DNA of 64,000 nucleotides from Ralstonia soli (GTDB lineage: Bacteria > Pseudomonadota > Gammaproteobacteria > Burkholderiales > Burkholderiaceae), in NCBI RefSeq assembly GCF_023955655.1, contig NZ_JAMXHT010000008.1, positions 124,001-188,000 on the forward strand. Reading direction: 5' to 3'. Under the pieces are notes generated by a model. The model saw only the letters and a program-made list of their open reading frames with translations, ran no database searches and was not told where the DNA came from. The position numbers and the translations under genes were made by a program. Below, in pieces: positions 9,663 to 34,751 of the stretch. Each line of letters starts with the position of its first letter. The first letter of the stretch is position 1.

Positions 9663-10445
9663 ATGACAAAGCTGGCAGCCAACCTGACCATGCTCTTCAA
9701 CGAGCAGGCGTTCCTCGACCGCTTCGAAGCCGCCGCTCGCGCGGGCTTCCGCGGTGTGGAGTTCCTGTTCCCCTACGCGTTCCATGCAGACCAGATTGCT
9801 GATCGCCTGAACCGCTTCCAGCTCGACCTGGTCCTGCACAACCTGCCGGCCGGCAACTGGGACGGTGGCGAGCGCGGCATCGCCGTGCTGCCCGATCGCG
9901 TGGGCGAGTTTCAGGAAGGCGTGGGTGAAGCGATCAAGTACGCCAAGGTGCTCGGCGTCAAGCAACTCAACTGCCTGGTGGGCATTCGCCCCGAAGGCGT
10001 GAGCGAAGACGTTGCACGCAAGACGCTGGTGGAGAACCTGAAGTTTGCAGCGAAGGCACTGAAGGCCGAGAAGATTGATCTGCTGGTCGAGCCGATCAAT
10101 ACGTTCGACATTCCTGGCTTCTACCTGAACCGCACGCAGCAGGCGCTGGACCTCATCAACGACGTGGATGCGTCCAACCTGTACGTGCAGTACGACATCT
10201 ATCACATGCAACGGATGGAGGGCGAAGTGGCGAACACGCTGAAGCGCCATCTGGACAAGATCAAGCATGTGCAGCTGGCGGACAACCCGGGGCGTAATGA
10301 GCCGGGGACTGGCGAGATCAACTACCAGTTCTTGTTCCGTTGGCTGGATGAGATTGGGTACAAGGGCTGGGTGGGGTGTGAGTACAAGCCTAAGGCTGGG
10401 ACGGTTGAAGGTCTTGGCTGGCGTGAGGCTCACCAGGTGGCTTGA
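9663..10445 (+). CDS. hyi: Hydroxypyruvate isomerase
   Basis: A 260-residue TIM-barrel enzyme interconverting hydroxypyruvate and tartronate semialdehyde. Family stretches: KLAANLTMLFNE, HNLPAGNWDGGERGIA, the metal-site region LLVEPINTFDIPGF, and YVQYDIYHMQRMEG. It has its own AAGGAG site 42 bp after gcl. The last 100 bases are strongly G-rich on the coding strand with unusual codons (GGG, TTG), unlike the rest of the gene, just before a compound repeat element. Confidence 0.95.
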   Translation: MTKLAANLTMLFNEQAFLDRFEAAARAGFRGVEFLFPYAFHADQIADRLNRFQLDLVLHNLPAGNWDGGERGIAVLPDRVGEFQEGVGEAIKYAKVLGVKQLNCLVGIRPEGVSEDVARKTLVENLKFAAKALKAEKIDLLVEPINTFDIPGFYLNRTQQALDLINDVDASNLYVQYDIYHMQRMEGEVANTLKRHLDKIKHVQLADNPGRNEPGTGEINYQFLFRWLDEIGYKGWVGCEYKPKAGTVEGLGWREAHQVA

Positions 10446-10473
10446 GCTTTTTGTCTGGTTTGGTTTTTGCCCC

Positions 10474-10685
10474 GGTGGTGCATCCCTTGTTTCATCCCCT
10501 GCCGGGGCTGACTCACTTTTCTTTGTCTTGCCAAAGAAAAGTAAGCAAAAGAAAGGCGCGCCCGAGATGGCGAAAGACTCCTTGAATTTATGTCGCAGGG
10601 AGGGGAAGGGAAAAACTCGCTTCGCTCAGACAGTTTCCCTTCCTTTTTCCTCCCTGCAACAGAAATTCAAGGCGCCATCAAGGGC
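10474..10685 (+). repeat. Compound palindrome 1, left module
   Basis: A module of about 210 bp, starting 28 bp after hyi. In order it holds: a small CCCC/GGGG hairpin; a second hairpin with 11-bp arms ACTTTTCTTTG and CAAAGAAAAGT around TCTTGC; the conserved spacer GGCGCGCCCGAGATGGC; and a long hairpin whose outer arms carry CTTGAATTT and AAATTCAAG and whose tip is ACTCGCTTCGCTCAGACAG. Seven related modules occur in the window. Short open frames in it are artefacts. Confidence 0.92.
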
Positions 10686-10810
10686 TCCAACGGCCAAACA
10701 GTCGGTTCATTAGTGCAGTAGTAAGAGCAGTTGCAGGTCACGCAGCAAAACAGCAATCAAGAGCCAGACAGAGCGACAGGACATGCAGACCTACGGTTTG
10801 CTTTTCCCTT

Positions 10811-11022
10811 GCCCTAGATGGCGCCTTGAATTTGTGTAAGCGGGCCGGAAAAAGAACGGGAACTGTCTAAGCGAAGCGAGTTTTCCCGTTCTCCGCCCGG
10901 TTACACAAATTCAAGGAGGGTGTCGCCATCTCGGGCGCGCCTTTCTTTGCTTACTTTCTTTGGCAAGACAAAGAAAGTGAGTCGCCCCCGGCAGGGGGTG
11001 AAAGGGAGTGGACCACCAAGGC
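10811..11022 (-). repeat. Compound palindrome 1, right module
   Basis: Inverted copy of the module at 10474-10685, so the pair forms one large inverted repeat around a 125-bp unrelated core. The long hairpin here has different inner arms (AACGGGAA against TTTTCCCGTT) but the same tip in reverse (CTGTCTAAGCGAAGCGAG). It ends with GTGGACCACCAAGG, the mirror of the left module's start, 50 bp before glxR. Together with the left module it fills the 627-bp hyi-glxR gap. Confidence 0.92.
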
Positions 11023-11072
11023 CCAATCCAACAACCGACGAACCAACATTCAAACCAAGGAGATCCCTCACC

Positions 11073-11984
11073 ATGGCAAACGCACTCAACCTCGGTTTCA
11101 TCGGCCTCGGCATCATGGGCGCCCCCATGGCCGGCCACCTGCGCGCCGCTGGCCACACGCTGTTCGTGCACGACGTGAACCCGGCCCCGGCCGCACTGGT
11201 GGAAGCCGGTGTGACGGTCTGCACAAGCGCCGAGGAAGTTGCCAAGCGCGCCGACATCATCTTCATCATGGTGCCGGACACCCCGCACGTTGAAGCCGTG
11301 CTGTTCAGCGAGAAGGGCGTTGCCAAGGCGCTGAAGGACGCAGGCAAGGACGCTGCTGCCAACAAGATCGTGGTCGACATGAGCTCGATCTCGCCGATCG
11401 CCACGAAGGACTTTGCCGCACGCATCAACAAGACCGGTGCCCAATACCTGGACGCTCCGGTGTCGGGTGGCGAAGTGGGCGCGAAGGCGGCCTCGCTGAC
11501 GATCATGGTCGGCGGTGACCAAGCTGCATTCGACCGTGTCACGCCGCTGTTCCAGCTGATGGGCAAGAACATCACGCTGGTGGGCGGCAACGGCGACGGC
11601 CAGACCACCAAGGTGGCCAACCAGATCATCGTGGCGCTGAACATCCAGGCCGTGTCGGAAGCCCTGCTGTTTGCCTCGAAGGCCGGTGCCGACCCCGCAA
11701 AGGTGCGTCAGGCGCTGATGGGCGGCTTCGCCAACTCGCGCATTCTGGAAGTGCACGGCGAGCGCATGGTCAAGCGTACGTTCGACCCGGGCTTCCGCAT
11801 CGAACTGCACCAGAAGGACCTGAACCTGGCCCTGCAAGGCGCCAAGGCACTGGGCGTGGCCCTGCCGAACACCGCGACCGCGCAAGAGCTGTTCAACACC
11901 TGCGCCGCCAACGGCATGGGCAAGCAAGATCACTCGGCACTGTGCCGCGCGATCGAGATCATGTCGAACCACGAGATCGCCTAA
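11073..11984 (+). CDS. glxR: 2-hydroxy-3-oxopropionate (tartronate semialdehyde) reductase
   Basis: A 303-residue beta-hydroxyacid dehydrogenase that reduces tartronate semialdehyde to D-glycerate with NAD(P)H. It has the N-terminal Rossmann motif GFIGLGIMGAPMAGHL, the substrate-loop signature DAPVSGGEVGA and the catalytic Lys region GQTTKVANQ. The ATG at 11073 is chosen for its AAGGAGA site and because the Rossmann fold starts at once; the longer open frame upstream runs into repeat DNA. Its 5' flank is markedly C-rich. Confidence 0.95.
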   Translation: MANALNLGFIGLGIMGAPMAGHLRAAGHTLFVHDVNPAPAALVEAGVTVCTSAEEVAKRADIIFIMVPDTPHVEAVLFSEKGVAKALKDAGKDAAANKIVVDMSSISPIATKDFAARINKTGAQYLDAPVSGGEVGAKAASLTIMVGGDQAAFDRVTPLFQLMGKNITLVGGNGDGQTTKVANQIIVALNIQAVSEALLFASKAGADPAKVRQALMGGFANSRILEVHGERMVKRTFDPGFRIELHQKDLNLALQGAKALGVALPNTATAQELFNTCAANGMGKQDHSALCRAIEIMSNHEIA

Positions 11985-12049
11985 GCCGTACCTTGCCGCC
12001 GCCTTCGGGTGGCGGCAGTTTCGTTTGAGCTGTCCCCACGCTTTCTGCC

Positions 12050-13369
12050 ATGCACAACGACTCTTCCGCTCAGGCCGCCTTGCGCGCCGCCCTGCCCAAC
12101 CCGTCGCCGCGCGCGCTGCTGCACGGCTTGTTTGATACCGCGGTGGCTGCTGTCAGTGCTGCACAGTGCCTGCCCGCGTTTCTGCCGGAACCCCCGCGTG
12201 GCCGCACCATCGTCATTGGTGCCGGCAAAGGTGCTGCGGCGATGGCCGAAGCCGTGGAGCAACACTGGACGGGCGAACTGTCGGGCCTGGTCGTCACGCG
12301 CTATGAGCATGGCCGTACGCCCGGCACGCAAGGCCGCATTGAAGTCGTGGAAGCCTCGCACCCGGTGCCCGATGCGGCCGGCCAACGTGCCGCGCAACGC
12401 ATGGTCGAACTGCTCAAGGGCCTGACGGAAGACGACCTCGTGCTGTGCCTGATCTCGGGCGGCGGCTCGGCCCTGCTGGCCGCACCGGCCGAAGGCCTGA
12501 CGCTGGCCGACAAGCAGACGGTCAACCGCGCGCTGCTCAAGAGCGGCGCGAGCATCGGCGAGATGAACTGCGTGCGCAAGCACCTCTCGTCGATCAAGGG
12601 TGGGCGCCTGGCACTGGCCTGCGCACCGGCGCGCGTGGAGACGCTGCTGATCTCCGACATCCCCGGCGATGATCCGACGCTCATCGCCAGCGGCCCGACG
12701 CTGCCGGATGCGACCACCTGCGCGGATGCGCTGGCCGTCATCAACAAATACGGCATCGACGTGCCGGAAGCGGTGCGCCGTCATCTGGAAACCGGCGCGG
12801 GCGAAACGCCCAAGCCCGGCGATGCGCGCTTCGAAGGCCATCGCAGCCATGTCATCGCAACGGCGCAGGATGCGCTGGAAGCGGCTGCCGCACAGGCACG
12901 CGCACTCGGTTACGAAGCGCACATCCTGTCGGACAGCATCGAAGGCGAAGCGCGTGATGTGGCCGAAGTGCATGCCGGCATCGTGCGGCAGATCGTGGCG
13001 CGCAATCAGCCGTTCACCAAGCCGTGCGTGATTCTGTCGGGCGGTGAAACCACCGTCACCGTGCGTGGCAACGGGCGCGGTGGCCGCAATGCCGAGTTCC
13101 TGCTCGCGCTGGGCGTGGCGCTGGACGGCCTGCCGGGCGTGCATGCGATTGCTTGCGATACCGATGGCATCGATGGCTCGGAAGACAACGCTGGGGCGAT
13201 TCTTACGCCGGACAGTCTTGCTCGTGCCGAGGCGCTGGGCCTGAAGCCGAAGCAGCTGCTCGACAACAACGATGGGTATGGGTTCTTTGATGCGCTCGGC
13301 GATTTGATTGTTACCAAGCCGACTCGGACGAATGTGAATGACTTTCGGGCGATTTTGATTACTGGGTGA
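12050..13369 (+). CDS. ttuD: Glycerate 2-kinase / hydroxypyruvate reductase, MOFRL family
   Basis: A 439-residue member of the glycerate kinase type 2 (GckA/TtuD, MOFRL) family. Members phosphorylate D-glycerate to 2-phosphoglycerate; some were first named hydroxypyruvate reductase. Motifs: IVIGAGKGAAAMAEAVE, CLISGGGSALLAAP, SDIPGDDPTLIASGPT, and the MOFRL stretch ILSGGETTVTVRGNGRGGRN then CDTDGIDGSEDNAG. It lies 65 bp after glxR, probably in the same transcript. The last 100 bases are G/T-rich next to the repeat element. Confidence 0.92.
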   Translation: MHNDSSAQAALRAALPNPSPRALLHGLFDTAVAAVSAAQCLPAFLPEPPRGRTIVIGAGKGAAAMAEAVEQHWTGELSGLVVTRYEHGRTPGTQGRIEVVEASHPVPDAAGQRAAQRMVELLKGLTEDDLVLCLISGGGSALLAAPAEGLTLADKQTVNRALLKSGASIGEMNCVRKHLSSIKGGRLALACAPARVETLLISDIPGDDPTLIASGPTLPDATTCADALAVINKYGIDVPEAVRRHLETGAGETPKPGDARFEGHRSHVIATAQDALEAAAAQARALGYEAHILSDSIEGEARDVAEVHAGIVRQIVARNQPFTKPCVILSGGETTVTVRGNGRGGRNAEFLLALGVALDGLPGVHAIACDTDGIDGSEDNAGAILTPDSLARAEALGLKPKQLLDNNDGYGFFDALGDLIVTKPTRTNVNDFRAILITG

Positions 13370-13393
13370 GGTTGGATGAGGGATGGATTGAGG

Positions 13394-13607
13394 TTGGTGG
13401 TCCATCCCTTGTTTCATCCCCTGCCGGGGCTGACTCACTTTTCTTTGTCTTGCCAAAGAAAAGTAAGCAAAAGAAAGGCGCGCCCGAGATGGCGAAAGCC
13501 TCCTTGAATTTCTGTCGCAAGGAGGGGAAGGGGAAAACTCGCTGCGCTCAGACAGTTCCCCTTCCTTGATCCTCCTTGCAACAGAAATTCAAGGCGCCAT
13601 CAAGGGC
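13394..13607 (+). repeat. Compound palindrome 2, left module
   Basis: Same module as 10474-10685, beginning 24 bp after ttuD with TTGGTGGTCCATCCC. The second hairpin again has 11-bp arms; the long hairpin tip is ACTCGCTGCGCTCAGACAG with inner arms GGGGAA and TTCCCC. Confidence 0.92.
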
Positions 13608-13629
13608 AAGGAACGGCCACACCGTCGCG

Positions 13630-14130
13630 GAGCCCTCGGCACTGGCTCTGTGAGTCCCGGTGTTAGCGCTTTGAGAGTCGACGCCGGCTCTTTGAGAGCC
13701 AGCATCGGCTCTCGGAGTCCCGACGCTGACGCTTTGAGACTCGGCGCTGGCTCTCCTGAGTCCCGATGTTGGCTCTTTGGGAGTCAACGCTGGCTCCTGG
13801 AGTCCCGACGCTGATGCTTTGAGACTCAGCGCGGGCTCTCTTGAGTCCCGATGTTGGCTCTTTGAGAGTCAACGCCGGCTCTTGGAGTCCCGACGCTGAT
13901 GCTTTGAGCCTCAGTGCTGGCTCTCCTGAGTCCCGATGTTGGCTCTTTGAGAGTCAACGCCGGCTCTTGGAGTCCCGACGCTGATGCTTTGAGACTCGGC
14001 ACTGGCTCTGTGAGTCCCGGTGTTAGCGCTTTGAGAGTCGACGCCGGCTCTTTGAGAGCCAGAACTGGAGTTTTGGGAGTCAGCATCGACTCTTGGAGTC
14101 CTTGCACCGACGCTTTGAGTGTCGATAGGA
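13630..14130 (+). repeat. Array of about 24 degenerate 21-bp repeats inside palindrome 2
   Basis: The core between the two modules is a tandem array of units starting GAG and ending GCTTT or GGCTCT, such as GAGTCCCGACGCTGATGCTTT. Units are 21 bp, every fourth often 22 bp, giving an 84-85-bp higher-order repeat: matching units start at 13758, 13843, 13928 and 14012. Because 21 is a multiple of three, several frames stay open and look like seven-residue protein repeats, but there is no credible start or ribosome site, so I do not call a gene. Confidence 0.88.
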
Positions 14131-14181
14131 ACAAGAAACACAGCGCCACGGGGCAGCCCACAGATGGTGTGGTCGTACCCT

Positions 14182-14393
14182 GCCCTAGATGGCGCCTTGA
14201 ATTTGTGTAAGCGGGCGGAAACAAGAAGGAGGCTGTTTGAGCGCAGCGAGTTTGCCTCCTTCTCCGCCCGGTTACACAAATTCAAGGAGGGGGTCGCCAT
14301 CTCGGGCGCGCCTTTCTTTGCTTACTTTCTTTGGCAAGACAAAGAAAGTGAGTCGCCCCCGGCAGGGGGTGAAAGGGAGTGGACCACCAAGGC
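14182..14393 (-). repeat. Compound palindrome 2, right module
   Basis: Inverted partner of 13394-13607, ending in GTGGACCACCAAGGCC about 30 bp before pyk. The long-hairpin inner arms are AAGGAGGC and GCCTCCTT, unlike the left partner, but fully complementary to each other. The 1054-bp ttuD-pyk gap consists almost wholly of this element. Confidence 0.92.
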
Positions 14394-14423
14394 CCAAACA
14401 GCAACACACCGGAACAACACATC

Positions 14424-15899
14424 ATGCGCCGCTTCCGCAACACCAAAATCCTCGCCACCCTCGGCCCCGCCAGCAGCGACAAAGACACCATCCGCGCCCT
14501 CGTCGACGCGGGCGCAGACGTCTTCCGCCTGAACTTCAGCCACGGCTCGCACGAAGACCACCGCAAGCGCTACGACACCGTGCGCGCGGTGGAAGCCGAG
14601 ACCGGCCGCCCCATCGGCATCCTCGCTGACATGCAAGGCCCGAAGCTGCGCATCGGTACGTTTGCCGAAGGCCGTGTCGTGCTCAAGCACGGCGAGCGCT
14701 TCGTGCTCGACCGCGACCCCACGCCGGGCGATGTCACCCGCGTGCACCTGCCGCACCCCGAGCTGTACGCGGCGGCCGCGCCCGGCCAATCGCTGCTGCT
14801 GGATGACGGCAAGATCCGCCTGGCCGTGGAAGCCGCCGACCCGACGGCCATCGTCACGCGCGTGGTCGACGGTGGCCCGCTGTCGGACCGCAAGGGCGTG
14901 AACGTGCCCGACGCGGTGATCCCCATTCCCGCGCTCACCGAGAAAGACCTGCGCGATCTGGACTTCGCGCTGTCGCTGGGGGTGGACTGGATTGCGCTGT
15001 CGTTCGTGCAGCGCGCCGAAGACGTGATCGCCGCGCGCGAGATCATCGGCGACCGCGCAGGCCTGCTCTCCAAGATCGAGAAGCCCGCCGCGCTGCTGCA
15101 CCTGGAAGACATCGTGCAGGCCTCCGATGCGCTGATGGTGGCACGCGGTGACCTGGGCGTGGAGCTGCCGCCCGAGCGCGTGCCCGGCGTGCAGAAGCGC
15201 ATCCTGCGCATCGCGCGCCAGCACGGCAAGCCGGTGGTCGTGGCCACGCAGATGCTCGAATCGATGATCGAGGCGCCGGTGCCGACGCGCGCCGAAGCGT
15301 CCGACGTGGCCACCGCCGTGTACGACGGCACCGACGCCGTGATGCTCTCGGCCGAATCGGCCAGCGGCAAGCACCCGGTGGCGGCGGTCAGCATCATGAA
15401 CCGCATCATTGCCGAGACCGAGCGCGATCCGCTGTACCGCAACCTGATCGACGCGCAGCACCAGGCCCCGCTGCCGACGCGCCAGGACGCCATCTGCGCG
15501 GCCCTGCGCGACGTGACGCACATCCTGGGCGCGGTGGCCACCGTCACCTACACGTCCAGCGGCAAGACGAGCCTGCGCGCCGCCCGCGAGCGGCCGCTGG
15601 CACCCATCGTCAGCATCACGCCGCGCCTGGATACGGCGCGCCGCCTGGCGATCGTCTGGGGTGTGCACAGCACCGTCAGCCCGGACGTGAGCAGCGTGGA
15701 CGAGATGGTAGACGCCGCCTGCCGCGCGGCCGCGCGCGAAGGCTTTGCCGCTGCGGGCGACCACATCGCCATCACGGCGGGCATGCCGTTCGGTCAGGCA
15801 GGTTCGACCAACCTGCTGCGCCTGGCTGAAATCTGGCCGCAGACACTGTCGACGGCACAAGCGGACACCAGCTCGCAGATCGAGCCGGCAGCGGTCTGA
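14424..15899 (+). CDS. pyk: Pyruvate kinase
   Basis: A 491-residue pyruvate kinase (phosphoenolpyruvate + ADP to pyruvate + ATP). Visible: KILATLGPASSD at the N-terminus, FRLNFSHGSHEDH, the active-site LLSKIEKPAALLHLEDIV with catalytic Lys, ARGDLGVELPPE, and TQMLESMIEAPVPTRAE. Start chosen at MRRFRNTK, where family similarity begins; the open frame continues 45 bp upstream into the repeat. Its position after gcl-hyi-glxR-ttuD suggests a dedicated path from glyoxylate-derived 2-phosphoglycerate to pyruvate. The first 60 coding-strand bases are strongly C-rich. Confidence 0.95.
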   Translation: MRRFRNTKILATLGPASSDKDTIRALVDAGADVFRLNFSHGSHEDHRKRYDTVRAVEAETGRPIGILADMQGPKLRIGTFAEGRVVLKHGERFVLDRDPTPGDVTRVHLPHPELYAAAAPGQSLLLDDGKIRLAVEAADPTAIVTRVVDGGPLSDRKGVNVPDAVIPIPALTEKDLRDLDFALSLGVDWIALSFVQRAEDVIAAREIIGDRAGLLSKIEKPAALLHLEDIVQASDALMVARGDLGVELPPERVPGVQKRILRIARQHGKPVVVATQMLESMIEAPVPTRAEASDVATAVYDGTDAVMLSAESASGKHPVAAVSIMNRIIAETERDPLYRNLIDAQHQAPLPTRQDAICAALRDVTHILGAVATVTYTSSGKTSLRAARERPLAPIVSITPRLDTARRLAIVWGVHSTVSPDVSSVDEMVDAACRAAAREGFAAAGDHIAITAGMPFGQAGSTNLLRLAEIWPQTLSTAQADTSSQIEPAAV

Positions 15900-17669: not shown

Positions 17670-18782
17670 ATGTGGCAGACACTGGCACGCCGCAGCGCCC
17701 ATGCGCTGGCCTGTGCGGCCGCCGCCGTGACGCTGGCGGCCCAGGCACAGGGCAACGCGCCGTTCGTGGTCGGGCAACTGGTCGAACGCGGCGGCGCGCA
17801 GGCCGACTACGCGCGTGATTTCATGGCCGGCGCCAAGGTCGCGTTCGATGCCGCCAACCAGGGCGGCGGCATCAAGGGCCGGCGCATCAGCCTCGTGCGG
17901 CGCGAAGCCGCGCAGAACGAGGCCGTGCCGCAGGCCGTGGACATGATTGAGCGCGACCGCGTGGAAGTGCTGTTCGGCGTGAGCGAGCGCCTGCTGCCCG
18001 CGCTGGCCGCGTCACCGGAAATCACGCGGCGCAATGTGCCGCTGCTTGCGCCGCTCTCGGGCGCCACGTCAGCGTCCGACAACGTGCTCTTCATCCGCCC
18101 CGACTACGACCACGAGATCATCGCCGCGCACAACCGGCTGCGGCAGTTCGGCATGCGGCGCATTGCGCTGGTCACCGCCTCGGGCTTCGACCCGCAGCTC
18201 GGCGCGCGCCTGCGAAGCGCGCTGGCTGGCACGGCACCGGCCAAGGGCGAGGCTGCCGAGGTGCTGGATCTCTACACCCTCACCGGCGAACCGGGTGAAC
18301 TGGCCGCACGCATTGCGCCCACCAAGCCCACGGCCGTCATCGTGGCCGGCGACACCCTCACCTACGCCGGTGTTGGACGCGCGCTCGCGCAGCAGGGGTG
18401 GTATGGCTTTCTGGTCGGGCTGTCGTCAGTGAACCCGCTGGTGGCCAGGGAGATTCTTGGCAGCGGCTACAGCGGCGGGATGCTGCTCGCGCAGACGGTG
18501 CCCAATGCGGCCAGCGGCAACACCAAGGTCGCGCGTGAGCACATGGCGCGCATGAAGCAATTTCTCGATGAGCCGCCTTCTGCTGCGACGTTGTCGGGGT
18601 ATATCGCCGCGACGTATCTGATTCAGGCGATGAATGCGGCCGGGGGGAAGGTGGCGGGGGCTGAACTGCGGCGGGCGCTGCAGGCTCGGGTGGATGTTGG
18701 TGGCTTTACTTTGGACTTCACGCGCGGGAATCGCGGGAGTGAGTTTGTGGATCTGAATTACATCCAGGGGGTTGGGAATTAG
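17670..18782 (+). CDS. Periplasmic substrate-binding protein, Leu/Ile/Val-type (orphan)
   Basis: A 370-residue exported protein of the Peripla_BP_6 family. A signal peptide (cleavage likely after LAAQAQG, about residue 28) precedes FVVGQLVERGGAQADYARD and two Rossmann-like lobes (VLFGVSERLLPALAAS, RRIALVTASGFDPQLGARLR, AVIVAGDTLTYAG). No permease or ATPase gene lies nearby, so it may serve a distant ABC transporter or a sensor. The ligand cannot be told. The final 150 bp are unusually G-rich next to a repeat element. Confidence 0.8.
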   Translation: MWQTLARRSAHALACAAAAVTLAAQAQGNAPFVVGQLVERGGAQADYARDFMAGAKVAFDAANQGGGIKGRRISLVRREAAQNEAVPQAVDMIERDRVEVLFGVSERLLPALAASPEITRRNVPLLAPLSGATSASDNVLFIRPDYDHEIIAAHNRLRQFGMRRIALVTASGFDPQLGARLRSALAGTAPAKGEAAEVLDLYTLTGEPGELAARIAPTKPTAVIVAGDTLTYAGVGRALAQQGWYGFLVGLSSVNPLVAREILGSGYSGGMLLAQTVPNAASGNTKVAREHMARMKQFLDEPPSAATLSGYIAATYLIQAMNAAGGKVAGAELRRALQARVDVGGFTLDFTRGNRGSEFVDLNYIQGVGN

Positions 18783-18792
18783 GGTTTTTATG

Positions 18793-19003
18793 TTGGTGGT
18801 GCATCCCTTGTTTCATCCCCTGCCGGGGCTGACTCACTTTCTTTGTCTTGCCAAAGAAAGTAAGCAAAGAAAGGCGCGCCCGATGCGGCGACCCACTCCT
18901 TGAATTTCTGTCGCAAGGAGGGAGGGGAGGCAAACTCGCTTCGCTCAGACAGCCTCCCCTCTTTTTCCTCCTTGCAACAGAAATTCAAGGCGCCGCATAG
19001 GGC
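18793..19003 (+). repeat. Compound palindrome 3, left module
   Basis: Another module, 10 bp after the binding-protein gene. Differences from palindromes 1 and 2 are paired: the second hairpin has 10-bp arms ACTTTCTTTG and CAAAGAAAGT, and the outer stem of the long hairpin is GCGGCG with CGCCGC instead of GATGGCG with CGCCATC. The tip ACTCGCTTCGCTCAGACAG is unchanged. Confidence 0.92.
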
Positions 19004-19053: not shown

Positions 19054-19095
19054 AAGGCCAACCTCGCGATGGGTTGGCCTTTGTTTTTGTCTTTT
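19054..19095 (+). terminator. Intrinsic terminator in the core of palindrome 3
   Basis: A 9-bp stem AAGGCCAAC / GTTGGCCTT (19054-19062, 19073-19081) is followed by TGTTTTTGTCTTTTG. It would stop transcripts leaving the upstream binding-protein gene. The same hairpin is found in the core of palindrome 4. Confidence 0.65.
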
Positions 19096-19103
19096 GACGT
19101 TGA

Positions 19104-19318
19104 GCCCTTGATGGCGCCTTGAATTTTCGTAACCGGGCGGAAAAAAGATGGGGAACTGTCTGAGCGCAGCGAGTTTTCCCCATCTCCGCCCGGTTACGAA
19201 AATTCAAGGGATGGGTCGCCATCTCGGGCGCGCCTTTCTTTTGCTTACTTTTCTTTGGCAAGACAAAGAAAAGTGAGTCGGTCCCGGCAGGGAACGAAAG
19301 GGAGGCGGACCACAAGCC
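19104..19318 (-). repeat. Compound palindrome 3, right module
   Basis: Inverted partner of 18793-19003, ending 9 bp before the rep stop codon. The small hairpin is TCCC/GGGA here rather than CCCC/GGGG, another paired change, and the long-hairpin inner arms are GATGGGGAA and TTCCCCATC. The gap lies between convergent genes. Confidence 0.92.
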
Positions 19319-19327
19319 CAAAAACCA

Positions 19328-21448
19328 TCAGGAAACCACAGGCTTCTTAGCCGACAACAACCCCTTCAGCGCACCAAGCCGATCCTTAGGCGACATCGCC
19401 GGCATCGAGTCCTCGGGCGTCGGCCCAGCATCATCACCAAGCTTCATCTCAGCGATATACCGCGAAGGCTCACACACAACCGTTTCCCGCGCCCGCTTGC
19501 GCTTCTTGCACCAACTGATATGCAGGCTGCGCTGCGCCCGCGTAATCCCCACATACATCAACCGCCGCTCTTCCTCGATCTTCTCGTCGGTCAGGTCATC
19601 GTCTTCACGGCAGTGCGGGAGGATGCCCTCCTCCACGCCCACCAGGAACACGTGCGGATACTCCAGCCCCTTGCTCGCATGCAGCGTTGAGAGCCGCACC
19701 GCGTCCGGGTCCTCTTCCTTGCCTTCGAGCATGCTGATCAGCGCGATGGTCTGCGTGAGTTCGAGCAGATTCTTGCCGGTGTCCATCAACCCATCCGCGT
19801 TGTCGAAGCCGGTGGCCTCTTCAGCGTCGTCTTTCTCCGGCTTGGTGCCCTTGCGCTTGAGCCAGTCGAGAAACTCCAGCACGTTGGTCCACTTGTTCTG
19901 GGCCTGGCGCTCGTCGTAGGTGTCGTACAGGTAGGCCTCGTAGTGGATGCCTTCCATCATCTCGTCGAGCAGCGTGGCGGCTGGCTCCTTCGCAGCGCGG
20001 TCCGACAGCCGCACGATGAATTCGCAGAACACGCGCAACGGCTCCAGCTGGCGCGCCGCGAGTTGCGCCTCGATGCCGCCCATCATCGCCGCCTCGAACA
20101 ATGACACCTTGGCCTGCCCGGCGAAGGCGCCCAGCACTTCCAGCGTCGCATTGCCCACGCCGCGCTTGGGCGTGGTGATGGCGCGGATGAAGGCAGGGTC
20201 GTCATCCGCGTTGGCGATCAGGCGCAGGTACGCGCACAGATCCTTGATCTCGGCCTTGTCGAAAAAGCTCTGCCCGCCCGAGAGCACATAGGGGATGCGC
20301 TCGCGCCGCAGAATCTGCTCGAACAGCCGCGCCTGGAAATTGCCGCGATACAGGATCGCGTAATCCCGGAACTGGGCGCGGCGCTCAAACTTGTGCGCGG
20401 AGAGCTTGAAGACGACGCTCTCGGCTTCGTGCTCTTCGTCGTTGGCGCTGGTCACGTTGATGGCATCGCCCATGCCGTGCTCGCTCCACAGCGTCTTCTC
20501 GAACAGCTTCGGGTTCTGGGCGATCACCGCGTTGGCGGCATTCAGGATGCGCACCGTGGAGCGGTAGTTCTGCTCCAGCTTGATCACCTTCAGGTTCGGG
20601 AAATCCGTCTGCAGCAGCTTGAGGTTGTCGAGCGTGGCGCCGCGCCAGCCGTAGATGGCCTGGTCGTCGTCGCCCACCGCCGTGAAGGCCGGCGCACGCA
20701 GGTGCGAGCCGCCCGCCAGCAGCTTGAGCAACTGGTACTGGCAGGCGTTGGTGTCTTGGTATTCGTCGACGAGGAAGTAGCGCAGGCGGTTCTGCCACTT
20801 CAGGCGCACTTCCTCATTGCGCGCGAACAGCTCGGCGGGCAGGCGGATCAGATCGTCGAAGTCCACCGCCTGATACGCGTGCAGCGTGGCGACGTAGTTG
20901 CGGTAGACCAGCGCGGCCTGGTGATCATCGACGTTGTTGTTGGCCAGCGCCTCGGCAATCGCCGTTTCCGGATCGACGAGGCCGTTCTTCCACAGCGAGA
21001 TCGTGCTCTGCACGCGGCGGATCAGTTGCTTATCGGTGGTTGCCAGCTGCTCCTGGATCATGCCGAAGCAATCGTCCGAATCCATGATCGAAAAGCGCGG
21101 CTTGAGGCCCACGTGCTCGGCCTCGGCCCGCAGAATCTGCACGCCCAGCGAGTGGAACGTGCACACCGTCAGCTGCTTGATGGGGATGCGCTTGCCGTCT
21201 TCGCGCGTCTTGCCTTCCATCAGCTTGGCCACGCGCTCCTGCATTTCCTTGGCCGCCTTGTTGGTGAAGGTGACCGCGGCGATGTGCTTGGGCTCGAAGC
21301 CCTTGTCCAGGATCAGGTGCGCGATCTTCTGCGTGATCACGCGCGTCTTGCCCGACCCCGCCCCGGCCAGCACCAGGCACGGGCCATCAAGGAAGTGCAC
21401 ACCTTCGGATTGGGCAGCATTGAGCCCGTGGGCGAGACCAGAAGACAT
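19328..21448 (-). CDS. rep: ATP-dependent DNA helicase Rep (UvrD/Rep superfamily 1)
   Basis: A 706-residue 3'-5' DNA helicase that helps forks pass protein roadblocks and works with PriA-type restart. Helicase motifs in order: Walker A AGAGSGKTRVITQ (about residue 30), TFTNKAAKEM, VDEYQDTN (motif II), GDDDQAIYGWRGA, EQNYRSTVRILN, LSTLHASKGLEYPHVFL and RRLMYVGITRA. The length suits Rep. The 3' end of the gene, next to palindrome 3, is A/C-rich on the plus strand with codon choice unlike the rest. Confidence 0.94.
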   Translation of the reverse strand: MSSGLAHGLNAAQSEGVHFLDGPCLVLAGAGSGKTRVITQKIAHLILDKGFEPKHIAAVTFTNKAAKEMQERVAKLMEGKTREDGKRIPIKQLTVCTFHSLGVQILRAEAEHVGLKPRFSIMDSDDCFGMIQEQLATTDKQLIRRVQSTISLWKNGLVDPETAIAEALANNNVDDHQAALVYRNYVATLHAYQAVDFDDLIRLPAELFARNEEVRLKWQNRLRYFLVDEYQDTNACQYQLLKLLAGGSHLRAPAFTAVGDDDQAIYGWRGATLDNLKLLQTDFPNLKVIKLEQNYRSTVRILNAANAVIAQNPKLFEKTLWSEHGMGDAINVTSANDEEHEAESVVFKLSAHKFERRAQFRDYAILYRGNFQARLFEQILRRERIPYVLSGGQSFFDKAEIKDLCAYLRLIANADDDPAFIRAITTPKRGVGNATLEVLGAFAGQAKVSLFEAAMMGGIEAQLAARQLEPLRVFCEFIVRLSDRAAKEPAATLLDEMMEGIHYEAYLYDTYDERQAQNKWTNVLEFLDWLKRKGTKPEKDDAEEATGFDNADGLMDTGKNLLELTQTIALISMLEGKEEDPDAVRLSTLHASKGLEYPHVFLVGVEEGILPHCREDDDLTDEKIEEERRLMYVGITRAQRSLHISWCKKRKRARETVVCEPSRYIAEMKLGDDAGPTPEDSMPAMSPKDRLGALKGLLSAKKPVVS

Positions 21449-25548: not shown

Positions 25549-25620
25549 GCGGCATACCTGCCAAAAAGCGCCATCCATTAGTCCTGATTGACAATCCCAG
25601 CCCCCTTCCGTACATTCCGC

Positions 25621-25853
25621 CCATCCATCCGGGAGAGCGTGCCCGCCGCACACGGCAAGGCACCGCCGAAGGGGTAGCACCCGAAAACTCTCAGGCATCC
25701 AGGACCGGGTGGATCGGCCAGACATGCGTCTGACCGCACTCTGGAGAGCTGGCGCCGCACGACCACTGCGGGCGCCCACCGAAGGGGCTCACGAACGGCG
25801 CGCACCGCTATGCGCACCGCTTCGCAATCTCTCAGGTACCAAGGACAGAGGGG
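25621..25853 (+). ncRNA. Tandem glycine riboswitch (gcvT leader)
   Basis: Two consecutive glycine aptamers precede gcvT. Aptamer 1 (about 25621-25713) has the closing stem CCATCCGG / CCGGGTGG, GGGAGAGCG, CCGAAGGGGTAGCACCCG and AACTCTCAGGCATCCAGGACC. Aptamer 2 (about 25737-25853) repeats the pattern: TCTGGAGAGC, CACCGAAGGGGCTCACG and AATCTCTCAGGTACCAAGGA. Glycine binding to such tandems normally switches on glycine cleavage genes. Confidence 0.95.
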
Positions 25854-25919
25854 CCATCCGCGTAGCTTGATTCTTCATGGCGTCACCATGGGGCATCAGG
25901 CTGCGCGGGTGGCCTTTTT
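25852..25919 (+). terminator. Riboswitch expression-platform terminator
   Basis: Directly after aptamer 2, the arms at 25852-25866 (GGCCATCCGCGTAGC) and 25900-25914 (GCTGCGCGGGTGGCC) form a 15-bp stem with two G-U pairs, followed by TTTTTGCTTTT. The stem starts at the base of aptamer 2, so ligand-dependent folding could decide between termination and read-through into gcvT. Confidence 0.75.
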
Positions 25920-25985: not shown

Positions 25986-27113
25986 ATGACGCTCCAACAC
26001 ACGCCGCTCAATGCCATCCACCGCTCGCTGGGCGCCCGCATGGTCGACTTTGGCGGCTGGGACATGCCCGTCAACTACGGCTCCCAGATCGAAGAACACC
26101 ACGCCGTGCGCCAAGACGCCGGCATCTTCGACGTCTCGCACATGTGCGTGGTCGACCTCACCGGCGCGCGTGTGCGCGATTTCCTGCGTGGGCTGCTCGC
26201 CAACAACGTCGACAAGCTGCAGACCCCGGGCAAGGCGCTCTACAGCTGCATGCTCAACCCCAAGGGCGGCGTGATCGACGACCTGATCGTCTACTTCTTC
26301 CGTGAAGACTGGTTCCGCCTGGTGGTCAACGCCGGCACCGCACCGACCGACCTCGAGTGGATCGTCGCGCAGAACGAAGCGGCCGGCACGGGCGTGACCA
26401 TCACCCCGCGCCGCTCGGACAACAACGCGGGCGCCGAGCCGCTGGGCATCCTCGCGGTGCAAGGCCCGAACGCCCGCGCCAAGACCTACGCCGCGCTGCC
26501 CGGCACGCAAGCCGTGGGCGAGGCGCTCAAGCCGTTCAATGCAGGCTTCGTCACCGTGGAAAACGTGGGCGAGATCATGGTCGCGCGCACCGGCTACACC
26601 GGTGAAGACGGCTTCGAACTGGTGGTGCCCGCCGCGCAGATCGCCGGCGTGTGGGAACGCCTGCTGCAAGCCGGCGTGCGCCCGGCCGGCCTCGGCGCGC
26701 GCGATACGCTGCGCCTGGAAGCCGGCATGAACCTCTACGGCCAGGACATGGACGAGCAGGTCTCGCCGCTCGACGCGGGCCTCGCCTGGACGGTCGACCT
26801 GCAAAGCGAACGCGACTTCACCGGCAAGGCGGCGCTGCAGGCCGGCGGCCAGCGCGAGCAGTTCGTCGGCCTGATCCTGCGCGACAAGGGCGGCGTGCTG
26901 CGCGCCCACCAGAAGGTCATCACCGCTTCCGGTGACGGCGAGATCACCAGCGGCACGTTCAGCCCGAGCCTGTCGCTGTCCATCGCGCTGGCGCGCCTGC
27001 CCAAGGATGTGGCAGTCGGCACCGACGTGCAGGTCGAGATCCGCGACCGCAAGTTGACCGCGACTGTGGTTAAACTGCCGTTCGTGCGCAATGGCAAGGC
27101 GCTGGTCAGCTGA
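25986..27113 (+). CDS. gcvT: Glycine cleavage system T protein (aminomethyltransferase)
   Basis: A 375-residue T protein, which takes the aminomethyl group from lipoylated GcvH and passes the one-carbon unit to tetrahydrofolate, releasing ammonia. Motifs: [48 protein letters not shown], and [20 protein letters not shown]. First gene of gcvT-gcvH-gcvP-sdaA, under the tandem glycine riboswitch. Confidence 0.97.
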
Positions 27114-27604: not shown

Positions 27605-30544
<2,940 letters not shown>

Positions 30545-30580
30545 AGGCGACCCTGGCGCCAAACCGCGCCAAGCGTCTTG

Positions 30581-30609: not shown

Positions 30610-30690
30610 TTGCATCTGAACAACCCGTGCGCGGGCGGCCACGACCCGACTCGCGCGCTTTATCCCCACGCGCCCCCGGAGGCCTACCCC

Positions 30691-32067
30691 ATGGCTGTTT
30701 CCGTTTTCGACCTCTTCAAGATCGGCATTGGCCCGTCCAGCTCACACACCGTCGGCCCGATGCGCGCCGCGCTGATGTTCGCCACGGCGCTCGAAACTGA
30801 TGGGCTGATGCCGCAAGTGGCCAGTGTGCGCGTGGAGCTGTACGGCTCGCTCGGCGCAACCGGCAAGGGCCACGGCACCGATCGCGGCGTGATCCTCGGC
30901 CTGATGGGCGAGGCACCGGACACCATCGACCCCGACACGATCGAAGCCAAGCTGGCCGAGTTGCGTAAATCGCAGTCCCTGTCGCTGCTGGGCCGCCATG
31001 CCGTGCGCTTTACCGAGAAGGAGCACATCGCCTTCTACCGCCGCGAAGCGATGGCCGAGCACCCGAACGGGATGAAGTTCCACGCCTTCGACGCAGCGGG
31101 CGAGCGGCTGCGCGAGGCGCGCTACCTGTCGGTCGGTGGCGGCTTTGTCGTCACGGCCGGGGCACCGAATACGCAGGTGCTGTCCGCGCATGACCAGTTG
31201 CCGCACCCGTTCCGCAGCGGCAAGGAACTGCTGGCGATGTGCGAATCGACCGGCAAATCCATCGCCCGCCTGATGTTGGAGAACGAGCTGGTCTGGCGCA
31301 CCGAAGCCGAAGTGCGCGCGGGCCTGCTCAACATCTGGCACGTGATGCAGGCGTGCGTGGCGCGCGGCTGCCGCACCGAGGGTGAACTGCCGGGCCCGTT
31401 CCATGTGCGTCGCCGCGCCGCTGAGTTGTATTCACGACTCACGGTGCAAGCCGAGCGCACGCTGTCCGACCCGCTGTCGGTGATCGACTGGGTGAACCTG
31501 TATGCGATTGCCGTGAACGAAGAGAACGCAGCGGGCGGGCGCGTGGTTACAGCGCCGACCAACGGCGCGGCGGGCATCATCCCGGCAGTGCTGCATTACT
31601 ACGACCGCTTCGTGCCCGGTGCGAACGACAGCGGCGTGGTGGATTTCCTGCTCACCGCCGGTGCGATCGGCATGTTGTACAAGATGAATGCTTCCATCTC
31701 CGGCGCGGAAGTCGGCTGTCAGGGCGAAGTGGGTGTCGCATGTTCGATGGCCGCCGGTGCGCTGGCTGCCGTGCAAGGCGGCACGCCCGAGCAAGTCGAG
31801 AACGCGGCCGAGATCGGTATGGAGCACAACCTTGGCCTGACGTGTGACCCGGTGGGCGGGCTGGTGCAGATTCCGTGTATTGAGCGTAATGCGATGGCGT
31901 CGGTGAAGGCCGTGAATGCGGCGCGCATGGCGTTGCGCGGGGATGGCACGCACTATGTGTCGCTCGACTCCGTCATCAAGACGATGCGGGAGACGGGGGC
32001 GGATATGAAGACGAAGTACAAGGAGACAGCGCGGGGTGGGTTGGCTGTCAATATCGTGGAGTGCTGA
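30691..32067 (+). CDS. sdaA: L-serine ammonia-lyase (serine deaminase)
   Basis: A 458-residue single-chain iron-sulfur serine dehydratase converting L-serine to pyruvate and ammonia. N-terminal beta domain: [21 protein letters not shown]-terminal catalytic domain: [38 protein letters not shown] and [20 protein letters not shown], with the cluster cysteines in these motifs. In the gcv context it removes serine made from glycine. Start ATG 30691 follows GGAGG; an upstream TTG frame has no family similarity. The last 60 bases are very G-rich (29 G, 9 C in 31981-32040). Confidence 0.95.
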
Positions 32068-32083
32068 GCTTCTGGATTTGTGT

Positions 32084-32294
32084 TGTTGGTGCATCCCTTG
32101 TTTCATCCCCTGCCGGGGCTGACTCACTTTCTTTGTCTTGCCAAAGAAAGTAAGCAAAGAAAGGCGCGCCCGATGCGGCGACCCACTCCTTGAATTTCTG
32201 TCGCAAGGAGGGAGGGGAAGCAAACTCGCTGCGCTCAGACAAGCCTCCCCTCTTTTTCCTCCTTGCAACAGAAATTCAAGGCGCCGCATAGGGC
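32084..32294 (+). repeat. Compound palindrome 4, left module
   Basis: Module starting 17 bp after sdaA, nearly identical to 18793-19003 (10-bp second hairpin, GCGGCG/CGCCGC outer stem, tip ACTCGCTGCGCTCAGACA). Palindromes 3 and 4 are clearly closer to each other than to 1 and 2. Confidence 0.92.
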
Positions 32295-32338
32295 CTGAAA
32301 GTCAAAAGCCAAACCCTCGAAGCGCCAGCGCAAACGAC

Positions 32339-32378
32339 AAGGCCAACCTCGCGATGGGTTGGCCTTTGTCTTTTGTCC
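32339..32378 (+). terminator. Intrinsic terminator in the core of palindrome 4
   Basis: The same AAGGCCAAC / GTTGGCCTT stem as in palindrome 3 (32339-32347, 32358-32366) is followed by TGTCTTTTGTCCTTT. It probably ends the gcv-sdaA transcript. Confidence 0.6.
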
Positions 32379-32390
32379 TTTGACGTTCCT

Positions 32391-32604
32391 GCCCTTGATG
32401 GCGCCTTGGATTTTTGTTGCGGGGAGGATAAAGAAGGGAGGCTTGTCTGAGCGTAGCGAGTTTGCCTCCCTTCCCTCCCCGCGACACAAATCCAAGGGGA
32501 AGTCGCCATCTCGGGCGCGCATTTCTTTGCTTACTTTCTTTGGGCAAGACCAAAGAAAGTGAGTCAGCCCCGGCAGGGGATGAAACGGGGGATGCACCAC
32601 AAGC
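32391..32604 (-). repeat. Compound palindrome 4, right module
   Basis: Inverted partner of 32084-32294. Paired variation: the second hairpin has an enlarged 8-nt loop, GGCAAGAC reading the plus strand, between intact 10-bp arms; the long-hairpin outer arms carry TTGGATTT with AAATCCAA rather than TTGAATTT with AAATTCAA. It ends with GATGCACCACAAG, 96 bp before the OPT gene. Confidence 0.92.
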
Positions 32605-32659
32605 AAAAAATTAGAGGAGGCACAAAAAAAACCAACAAACCACCCCATCCCTCCCCTCC

Positions 32660-32665
32660 TATAAT
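32660..32665 (+). promoter_or_regulatory. Possible -10 box of the OPT gene
   Basis: A perfect TATAAT lies 34 bp before the OPT start, in an A/C-rich stretch just outside palindrome 4. No good -35 hexamer is visible at 16-18 bp upstream. Confidence 0.35.
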
Positions 32666-32699
32666 CCGCGCCACAAGAACCCTTTAGGAGCCCCGCAGG

Positions 32700-34751
32700 A
32701 TGCAACCTCTCCATCCTCCCAAGCACATTCCGGCAGCGACCCTGCCGGAGCTGACGCTGCGCGGCATGATCCTCGGTGCCATCATCACCGTGATCTTCAC
32801 CGCATCCAACGTGTACCTCGGCCTGAAAGTGGGCCTGACATTTTCTTCGGCGATTCCCGCAGCGGTGATCTCGATGGCGGTGCTGCGCATGCTCGGCGGC
32901 ACGAACATCCTCGAGAACAACATGGTGCAGACGCAAGCGTCTGCGGCCGGGACGCTGTCTTCGATCATCTTCATCCTGCCGGGCCTGGTGATGATCGGGC
33001 ACTGGCAAGGTTTTCCGTTCTGGCAAACGTTCGGCGTGTGCATGGCCGGCGGCATGCTGGGCGTGGTGTTCACGATCCCGCTGCGCCACGCGATGGTGGT
33101 GCAGAGTGATCTGCCCTACCCCGAAGGCGTGGCTGCGGCGGAAATCCTGCGCGTGGGCAGCGGCCACTCGGCGGACGGTGCAGACACCGATGACGATGCC
33201 GTGCCCGCCGCCACCGGCATGCGCGATCTCGCCGCGGGCGGCATCGTCGCGGCCATCGTGGCGTTTGCAACCAGCGGCCTGCGCGTGCTGGGCGAAGGCG
33301 CGAGCTGGTGGTTCGCGGCCGGCGCATCGGTGGTGCGATTGCCGTTGGGCTTTTCAACGGCGCTGCTCGGCGCGGGTTACCTGATCGGCCTGGTGGCCGG
33401 GCTGGCAATGCTGGTGGGCCTGATCATCGCTTGGGGCATCGCGGTGCCCTACCTGACTTCCATCACGCCGATGCCGGCGGGCAAGGCGCTCGCCGCATTC
33501 GGCACCGATGTGTGGCGCACGCAGGTGCGCTTCATTGGCGCGGGCGTGATCGCCGTGGCGGCGGTGTGGACACTGGGCACGCTGATCGGCCCCGTGGTGC
33601 AGGGCGTGAAGCGCTCGTTCGGCAGCCTGCGCCCGCAAGGCGACGCCAAACAGCGTACCGACCAGGACATGGCGCCGCGCTGGATTCTGCTCGTCACGCT
33701 GGCGATGGTGGTGGTGCTGGTGATCACCTTCGCAGCGTTCCTCGCGCCGACCATGCTGTCGGCCGGCTCACGCTGGACGCTGATCACCTGCGCGGTGATC
33801 TTCGCGGTGGTGTTCGGCTTCCTGGTGGCAGCGGCGTGCGGCTATATGGCCGGGCTGATCGGCTCGTCGTCGAGCCCGATTTCGGGCATCGGCATCATCG
33901 CCATCACCTTGGTGTCGCTGCTGTTGTTGGCCATTGGCGCGAACAATGGCCTGATGGGTTCGCCGGAAGCGAGCAAGCTGGGCATCGCGCTGGCGATCTT
34001 CACGACGTCGGCCGTGGTGGCCGTGGCGACCATCTCCAACGACAACCTGCAGGATCTGAAGACCGGCTGGCTGGTCGGGGCTACGCCGTGGCGCCAGCAG
34101 GTGGCGCTGCTGATCGGCTGCGTGGCGGGGGCAGCGGTCATCTCGCCGGTGCTGGAGCTGCTCTACAACGCATACGGCTTCCCGGGTGCGCTGCCGCGCG
34201 CCGGCATGGATGCGGCCCAGGCGCTGTCCGCACCGCAAGCCACGCTCATGACGGCGATTGCCACCGGCATCTTCACGCACAAGCTGGAGTGGAACATGGT
34301 GATTGCGGGCATCGTGATCGGTGCCATCCTCATCGCCATCGACTGGGTATTGAAGCGCCGCGGCGGCGTGGCACGGCTGCCCGTGCTGGCCGTGGGCATC
34401 GGCATCTATCTGCCGCCGACCATCAGTACGGTGCTGGTGACCGGCGCGGTGCTGGCGTGGGTCATCGAGAAGATGCTTGCCAAGCGCGCACAAGCTGCAG
34501 GCGTGCCGGTCGAGCGTTATGCCGAGGTGCCGAACCGCCACGGCGTGCTGCTGGCTTCGGGCCTGATCGTGGGCGAGAGCCTGGTCGGCGTGGTGATGGC
34601 GGCCATCATTGGCAGCACGAGCAGCGATGCGCCGCTGGCGATTGTGGGCGCGTCGTTTGAAGGCACGGCGCAATGGCTTGGGCTGATCGTGTTCGCCTTG
34701 GTATGCTGGGCGTTCGCGCGCCGCGTGCTGGCGGTGCGCCCGACACACTAA
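32700..34751 (+). CDS. Oligopeptide transporter, OPT family
   Basis: A 683-residue polytopic inner-membrane protein of the OPT superfamily (about 15 membrane spans), which takes up oligopeptides or metal chelates by proton coupling. Family marks: ELTLRGMILGAIITVIFTAS, NVYLGLKVGLTFSSAIPAAV, NNMVQTQASAAGTLSS and SDLPYPEGVAAAEIL. The ATG follows AGGAGCCCC. The gene is followed after 17 bp by a GNAT gene. The substrate is not predictable. Confidence 0.92.
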   Translation: MQPLHPPKHIPAATLPELTLRGMILGAIITVIFTASNVYLGLKVGLTFSSAIPAAVISMAVLRMLGGTNILENNMVQTQASAAGTLSSIIFILPGLVMIGHWQGFPFWQTFGVCMAGGMLGVVFTIPLRHAMVVQSDLPYPEGVAAAEILRVGSGHSADGADTDDDAVPAATGMRDLAAGGIVAAIVAFATSGLRVLGEGASWWFAAGASVVRLPLGFSTALLGAGYLIGLVAGLAMLVGLIIAWGIAVPYLTSITPMPAGKALAAFGTDVWRTQVRFIGAGVIAVAAVWTLGTLIGPVVQGVKRSFGSLRPQGDAKQRTDQDMAPRWILLVTLAMVVVLVITFAAFLAPTMLSAGSRWTLITCAVIFAVVFGFLVAAACGYMAGLIGSSSSPISGIGIIAITLVSLLLLAIGANNGLMGSPEASKLGIALAIFTTSAVVAVATISNDNLQDLKTGWLVGATPWRQQVALLIGCVAGAAVISPVLELLYNAYGFPGALPRAGMDAAQALSAPQATLMTAIATGIFTHKLEWNMVIAGIVIGAILIAIDWVLKRRGGVARLPVLAVGIGIYLPPTISTVLVTGAVLAWVIEKMLAKRAQAAGVPVERYAEVPNRHGVLLASGLIVGESLVGVVMAAIIGSTSSDAPLAIVGASFEGTAQWLGLIVFALVCWAFARRVLAVRPTH

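What the first reader, a model, noticed from the sequence alone, without database searches (positions are those of the whole stretch)
10381..32700. Mirror-image strand-bias footprint in the genes flanking each palindrome
Hand counts on the plus strand. Left flanks (gene ends): 10381-10440 24 G/12 C; 13321-13370 17 G/7 C; 18721-18780 24 G/9 C; 31981-32040 29 G/9 C. Right flanks: 11021-11080 8 G/22 C; 14401-14460 8 G/27 C; 19321-19380 9 G/23 C; 32641-32700 9 G/28 C. Controls away from elements: gcl end 9561-9620 18 G/17 C; gcvT end 27061-27110 17 G/13 C; gcl start 7845-7904 20 G/11 C, opposite to the glxR and pyk starts. The bias reaches into coding DNA and shifts codon choice. Hypothesis: repeated breakage at the palindrome and 5' resection leaves 3' single-stranded tails whose cytosines mutate, depleting C on the left top strand and G on the right.
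Basis: partly seen in the sequence, partly recalled or inferred. Interest (0 to 1): 0.85.

Follow-up and report, generated by a model that had tools for sequence, protein, structure and literature searches.

The report
Repeat that skews its neighbours' DNA
A repeated, hairpin-rich DNA element between genes in Ralstonia gradually removes the letter C from one strand of whatever lies beside its outer end; the effect starts when the element arrives and tends to fade when it is lost, but the mechanism is not yet known.

Summary
All eleven hand counts reproduce. Of 46 full ~210-bp units (14 inverted pairs, 18 single) in the ~851 kb held of this Ralstonia genome, 45 have a G-rich outer flank at 30-130 bp on the strand whose 3' end faces the unit. 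The skew decays with a 240-bp length; about 1000 gene ends and starts without a unit largely lack it. Fourfold-site C falls from 0.45 to 0.09-0.15, whichever strand codes. The unit causes it: where a gene loss put a unit next to glxR, C was lost 15 times and regained once within 300 nt; where units were lost, C tends to return.

The unit also carries a triplex-like core whose three tracts match in length in 235 of 244 copies. Related elements in three other genera show the same flank skew, 10 of 10 places.

The parts
10479..10700 (+). left unit of pair 1 (outer tip at the low end; triplex-like core 10515-10556)
10811..11004 (-). right unit of pair 1 (outer tip at the high end)
10178..10478 (+). 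left footprint: end of hyi, C-poor on the top strand
11005..11305 (+). right footprint: upstream region and start of glxR, G-poor on the top strand; weak inside the coding part
13403..13622 (+). left unit of pair 2
14182..14375 (-). right unit of pair 2
13103..13402 (+). left footprint: end of the gene at 12050-13369 (ttuD-like by position, name not tested)
14376..14676 (+). right footprint: start of pyk
18800..18994 (+). left unit of pair 3
19092..19300 (-). right unit of pair 3
18500..18799 (+). left footprint: end of the gene at 17670-18782
19301..19601 (+). right footprint: end of the minus-strand rep/uvrD-type helicase gene (19328-21448)
32090..32285 (+). left unit of pair 4
32391..32596 (-). 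right unit of pair 4 (variant core)
31790..32089 (+). left footprint: end of the gene that stops at 32067
32597..32897 (+). right footprint: upstream region and start of the gene at 32700

Best explanation
Shown: each ~210-bp unit (outer tip, triplex-like core, GGCGCGCC, long hairpin) is a polar cis-acting element. Over about 240 bp outward from its tip, substitution is biased against C on the strand whose 3' end faces the unit, whichever way the genes run. The bias appears where a unit is brought next to a gene and tends to fade where the unit is lost. Inferred: the unit's folded DNA repeatedly causes strand-specific processing that starts at the tip, for example a nick or gap on one strand followed by excision and resynthesis, so that mismatches and lesions in the flank are resolved towards one strand. 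Such a repair bias would make complementary changes move in opposite directions and leave the total rate nearly unchanged. It is not a two-ended break with deamination.
For: One-sided at single units: outer 18 of 18 positive, inner 3 of 18. Same fourfold bias when the coding strand is the C-poor or the other strand. Equal strength in tandem pairs on the gene-end side (0.297) and in convergent pairs (0.299), and no relation to far skew, so neither gene transcription direction nor replication direction sets it (r=0.10, p=0.51, 46 flanks). Gain at glxR: 15 C>G/T against 1 reverse in 300 nt, other branches 12 against 8. Loss: G/T>C 47 of 297 near against 30 of 789 far; unit-bearing lineages 23 of 1262 near. 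Rates near/far G>C x0.28, T>C x0.23, C>G x5.2, C>T x1.7, with the model's equilibrium equal to the present composition. Total divergence not raised. Other genera with different tips show it, 10 of 10 places.
Against: No nick, gap or repair intermediate was observed; the mechanism is inference. The rate pattern fits selection against C just as well. Raised rates of about x5 exceed what removing one strand's errors alone would give (x2). Not every loss relaxes: the pyk start in G013 and the 17670-18782 gene end in G002 and G013 keep full skew. Genera without the unit show part of the skew at two gene ends. In the glxR clade, 300-600 nt away also leans the same way (6 against 1).
Confidence: 0.45

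Rival explanations
1. Selection on RNA: the unit is a 3'-UTR RNA element read from inner to outer end, and the RNA beyond its tip is kept G-poor, A/C-rich and unstructured, for instance as a Rho loading region that stops read-through or antisense transcription. Selection fades with distance as fewer transcripts reach further.
For: 16 of 18 single units have their inner end behind a gene end; pairs are 11 tandem, 3 convergent, 0 divergent of 14. Hairpin mismatches are G.U-type on the inner-to-outer strand 221 times, on the other 49 times (243 distinct hairpins sharing ancestry). Outward strand near the tip is A/C-rich and G-poor. Rates into C fall as selection predicts.
Against: Equal skew on the gene-end side of tandem pairs, where no annotated gene reads outward; G.U asymmetry is the same there, 10 against 1. 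Reaches the translated first 300 nt of pyk, where a Rho site would be harmful. Needs scaled selection of about 2-3 on single synonymous sites at nearly all 46 flanks (estimated).
Confidence: 0.33
2. Strand-asymmetric biased gene conversion: recombination starting at the tip favours G or T over C in heteroduplex on the 3'-ended strand.
For: Fixation-like rate pattern; decay over hundreds of bases; units switch core type as blocks at 17 of 44 orthologous places, which suggests conversion among units.
Against: No known conversion bias prefers G and T over C on one strand only (recalled, not searched). Orthologous units are still more alike (0.922) than paralogous ones (0.881).
Confidence: 0.12
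3. One reading: two-ended breaks at the palindrome, 5' resection, and deamination of exposed cytosines.
For: Sign of the skew; C>T 11 against C>G 4 in the newly exposed glxR flank.
Against: One-sided at single units; no raised divergence, C/T differences not raised; T>C and G>C suppressed.
Confidence: 0.05
4. Insertion or retention preference: units sit where the skew already exists.
For: Without the unit, the rep/uvrD end has terminal-minus-middle fourfold skew above zero in 12 of 12 family genera examined (+0.02 to +0.53) and the pyk start below zero in 3 of 3.
Against: Gain and loss inside Ralstonia move the skew in the predicted direction.
Confidence: 0.05

Closest known systems
Intrastrand triplex motifs (BoxC / PIT / TM_ECO; PMC4666352, abstract, passages and sections 15-16 seen)
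   Same: Dispersed intergenic repeats with three consecutive tracts that could form an intrastrand triplex, sometimes in inverted pairs, lost by deletions that leave a hairpin
   Different: Core here is A/T-rich and does not fit the G/C-rich TM_ECO pattern; unit has a tip and a long hairpin besides; the words skew, asymmetry and Ralstonia do not occur in that paper
REP / BIME repeats
   Same: Extragenic palindromes, often behind genes, in alternating orientation
   Different: Units are about 210 bp, few (44 core hits) and not 20-40 bp; transposase (RAYT) link not tested; flank skew not known to me for REPs (recalled)
Replication and transcription strand asymmetry (GC skew)
   Same: G and T exceed C and A on one strand
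   Different: Scale 240 bp, centred on an element, independent of gene direction and of far skew
Rho-dependent terminators (recalled)
   Same: Outward strand is C-rich and G-poor after a gene end
   Different: Extends hundreds of bases into coding DNA and is equal on antisense sides; termination not tested

Membership tests
BoxC / PIT / TM_ECO triplex motif | Pattern CCCTCNCCC N3-6 GGGNGAGGG N3 GGGNGAGGG | tested here: not met
   Pattern from PMC4666352 section 16; the core aligned is CTTTCTTTG...CAAAGAAAG...CAAAGAAAGG
Intrastrand triplex motif (general) | Three consecutive compatible tracts | tested here: met
   Matched run lengths in 235 of 244 copies; both states occur at orthologous places
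Intrastrand triplex motif (general) | Folds as a triplex in solution | not testable with these tools
   Needs CD or NMR
REP / BIME | 20-40 bp palindrome, high copy number | tested here: not met
   Units about 200-220 bp, 46 full units in the 851 kb held; 44 core hits in the genome
REP / BIME | Associated RAYT transposase | not tested
   No search made
MITE / mobile repeat | Terminal repeats with target-site duplications and variable position | not tested
   Duplications not examined; most flanks compared had the unit at the same orthologous place in other Ralstonia
Resected double-strand-break hotspot | Footprint on both sides of a single site | tested here: not met
   Inner flank of single units 3 of 18 positive, mean -0.105
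Rho-dependent terminator | C-rich, G-poor transcript region | tested here: met
   Outward strand composition
Rho-dependent terminator | Transcript ends that depend on Rho | not testable with these tools
   Needs 3'-end mapping

The most novel reading that the evidence does not exclude
A non-coding chromosomal element imposes a polar, reversible, strand-specific substitution bias on neighbouring coding DNA by directing local DNA processing or repair outward from its tip: a cis-acting local rewriter of synonymous sites, shared by related elements in several proteobacterial genera.
Probability: 0.45. Interest if true: 0.9.

Novelty: new variant of a known kind. Interest (0 to 1): 0.78.

Why it matters
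Local strand asymmetry in bacteria is usually put down to replication or transcription. Here a small intergenic repeat sets it, in both coding orientations, and natural gains and losses point to cause. If DNA processing is responsible, these units mark places where one strand is repeatedly exposed or rewritten in living cells. If RNA selection is responsible, they are a readable set of outward transcription-control signals. Either way, synonymous-site and codon-usage analyses near such repeats are biased, and the question can be tested with one reporter beside a unit.

Tried and rejected
Considered and rejected or set aside. (a) A general gene-end or gene-start effect: the 496 ends and 506 starts without a unit do not show it; only small general fourfold effects exist (terminal minus middle +0.044 at 254 ends, -0.096 at 271 starts). 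(b) Polar replication-fork arrest: both flanks of pairs carry the skew and near skew is unrelated to far skew; replication direction itself was not mapped. (c) A known RNA family: on the units Rfam gave only matches below the families' gathering scores (miRNA-type hairpins and one WLE3). (d) The unit's letters in print: six strings searched, 8 papers hold one, 7 listed, all on unrelated subjects by title. Searches showed no report of this footprint among the titles and abstract starts listed (lists capped); only PMC4666352 was opened. (e) A Chi-like GNTGGTGG in the tip as the cause: seen by eye in some tips, not tested; tips of the other genera differ. (f) Parsimony rates (fourfold total 1.13 and 0.96 near, 1.14 far; C>T 6 events within 200 bp) were replaced by ML, since parsimony over-counts common-to-rare changes. 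(g) Whether core or hairpin is needed: of 18 tip-like places without core or loop match, 13 exceed 0.15 (mean 0.274), against 215 of 228 with both; several of the 18 are contig ends, duplicate copies of one place or chance hits, and many may be recent losses.

Rows left out before counts: the 'short/other' class (10 gene ends, 9 above 0.15); outer flanks 150 bp or more away (2 ends and 3 starts, 2 of 5 above 0.15); L259 (G292, AT-rich, no other element feature) left out; G028 (3 hits) not fetched; flank set F44 left out; 4 of 46 units without a clear core not shown. Gene calls come from my own simple ORF caller. One search labelled G019 unit-like by a loose match; its sequence shows no unit and I count it as without. 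In one search some orthologue ends may be misplaced (for G409 and G418 the reading ran on to the next stop).
Full report
1. What was checked. The eleven hand counts are exact. The window is part of a 5.73-Mb genome (G000:C30:124001-188000). A 22-base core pattern has 44 hits in G000. All 15 same-genus relatives drawn have 19-56 hits, and 2 of 25 other family or order genomes have any. In 369 class genomes at two mismatches or fewer, 5 have hits, the own genome included.

2. Anatomy. From outer to inner end a unit reads: a tip (about GTTGGTGGTCCATCCCTTGTTTCATCCCCTGCCGGGG), a triplex-like core (ACTTTCTTTG TCTTGC CAAAGAAAGT AAG CAAAGAAAGG), GGCGCGCC, then GATGGCG...CGCCATC around a long hairpin with the loop ACTCGCTKCGCTYARACA (42 of 46 units shown). 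In the ~851 kb held there are 46 full units at 32 sites: 14 inverted pairs with tips outward and spacers of 83-1536 bp, and 18 single units. Of the 18, 16 have the inner end behind a gene end; pairs are 11 tandem, 3 convergent, 0 divergent, against 485, 124 and 105 for neighbouring genes in the held sequence. The three core tracts have equal run lengths in 235 of 244 copies, (3,3,3) 183 and (4,4,4) 52. At 17 of 44 orthologous places more than one length state occurs, mostly (3,3,3) and (4,4,4), which suggests switching as a block. Orthologous units average 0.922 identity (202 pairs) and paralogous ones 0.881 (1035 pairs). Hairpin mismatches are G.U-type on the inner-to-outer strand 221 times and on the other 49 times over 243 distinct hairpins that share ancestry.

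3. The footprint. At 30-130 bp pair flanks have G 0.41, C 0.18, against 0.33 and 0.33 beyond 3 kb; 45 of 46 outer flanks are positive; decay length 240 bp. Single units have no such skew on the inner side (mean -0.105). Fourfold sites at 50-100 bp: C 0.086, G 0.710, T 0.181, A 0.024 when the coding strand is the oriented top; C 0.151, G 0.626 when it is the bottom; far C 0.45, G 0.45. Noncoding at the closest 25 bp: T 0.457, G 0.357, C 0.127, A 0.058. Gene ends and starts without units largely lack it. Near skew is unrelated to far skew (r=0.10), and in tandem pairs the gene-end flank (0.297) equals convergent pairs (0.299); gene-start flanks are lower (0.218).

4. Cause and reversal. In G004, G006 and G013 the gene between glxR and the second pair (12050-13369 here) is missing, so that the unit follows glxR; G013 has since lost the unit and keeps a short hairpin. 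In the last 300 nt of glxR this clade shows 15 C>G/T events and 1 reverse, other branches 12 and 8. At 300-600 nt it is 6 and 1, others 8 and 12, so a weaker lean reaches there too. Fourfold skew of the last 300 nt is 0.51 (G006), 0.29 (G004) and 0.11 (G013), against -0.12 to +0.21 in 11 other genomes. At six flanks where some lineage lost the unit, G/T>C away from the unit-bearing consensus is 47 of 297 near and 30 of 789 far; in unit-bearing lineages it is 23 of 1262 near and 111 of 4072 far. The lost lineages are about twice as diverged (C>G/T far 0.132 against 0.062), so the corrected excess is about fourfold. By place the near counts G/T>C against C>G/T are 17:0, 2:1, 1:1, 6:4, 10:1 and 11:0. 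Over 14 flanks near-unit fourfold C is 0.115 with the unit and 0.255 without (231 site observations, not independent). At the hyi end the raw skew is 0.21-0.38 with the unit next to it and 0.15-0.22 in the three genomes without. Not every loss relaxes: the pyk start in G013 and the 17670-18782 gene end in G002 and G013 keep full skew, while G001 lost it at the latter.

5. Spectrum. Fourfold divergence near units is 0.27-0.32 within 200 bp and 0.24-0.28 beyond 600 bp. G/T differences rise from about 0.02 to 0.13-0.15 within 100 bp; C/G differences fall there (0.03-0.05 against 0.11); C/T differences do not rise (0.04-0.05 against 0.05-0.06) (147 flank alignments). A non-reversible model on 226 near and 1838 far columns gives near/far rates C>G 3.71/0.72, C>T 1.38/0.82, G>C 0.23/0.81, T>C 1.49/6.60, G>T 0.56/0.12, T>G 2.86/1.38; its equilibrium (C 0.09, G 0.75) is close to the present composition (C 0.115, G 0.700). 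A second rooting gives the same directions. Suppressed change into C is not what added deamination would do; it fits a fixation bias, or a repair bias towards one strand.

6. Generality. At ten places in G019, G152, G165 and G269 (three genera outside Ralstonia by the handles' genus labels) a related core with a different tip has outer skew of 0.31 at 20-60 bp and 0.33 at 60-120 bp, 10 of 10 positive in both bins, and 0.03 at 240-400 bp. One inverted partner in G152 (L254) appears to have runs of six in stem and third tract, read by eye from the letters.

7. Evidence against a purely element-made skew. At the rep/uvrD end, 12 family genera without the unit have terminal-minus-middle fourfold skew from +0.02 to +0.53 (mean 0.30). 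At the pyk start three of three are negative (-0.21 to -0.47). With the unit, G000 reaches +0.79 and -0.85. So a gene-specific part exists at these two places, or other elements once sat there.

8. Mechanism. Shown: polarity, decay, dependence on strand and not on gene, gain and partial reversal, near steady state. Inferred: a strand-specific DNA process starting at the tip; nick- or gap-directed repair bias fits the nearly unchanged total rate and the opposite movement of complementary changes. The close rival is selection for G-poor outward RNA, supported by the placement behind genes and the G.U asymmetry, and weakened by equal skew where no gene reads outward. Two-ended breakage with deamination is disfavoured. 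The tests that would separate these are under next steps.

9. Known kinds. The nearest printed relative I found is the intrastrand triplex motif family (PMC4666352: abstract, passages, sections 15 and 16 seen); its G/C-rich pattern is not met here, and 'skew', 'asymmetr' and 'Ralstonia' have no occurrence in that paper's main text. Nine literature searches listed no report of such a footprint; the library is limited and lists were capped.

Noticed in passing
window 25620-25717 and 25731-25858 +: Two glycine riboswitch aptamers in tandem ahead of the gene at 25986 (gcvT in the finding); both above Rfam's gathering score. Ordinary.
   Followed up: no
units throughout; e.g. window 10515-10556: Run lengths of the two stem arms and of the third tract of the core match in 235 of 244 copies, and both length states occur at the same orthologous places: a hint of selected triplex formation or of conversion among units.
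   Followed up: partly
window 13622-14182 (spacer of pair 2): Spacer is built of diverged short repeats like GGCTCTTTGAGAGTC; similar spacers occur in pairs at G000:C27:125319-126430 and C1:506571-507108.
   Followed up: no
L160 (G013) and other unit-less places: Lost pairs leave a short tip-to-tip hairpin (GGTGGTC...GGACC-like), as expected from deletion of the middle of a palindrome.
   Followed up: partly
L148, L158, L160 (G006, G004, G013): The gene at window 12050-13369 is absent between glxR and pyk in this clade; this deletion made the natural experiment at the glxR end.
   Followed up: yes
G000:C28:383847 (L130), G000:C30:73474 (L136): Tip-only short palindromes without core or hairpin that also have skewed flanks (0.31 and 0.26); whether they are remnants or an older small form is open.
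   Followed up: no
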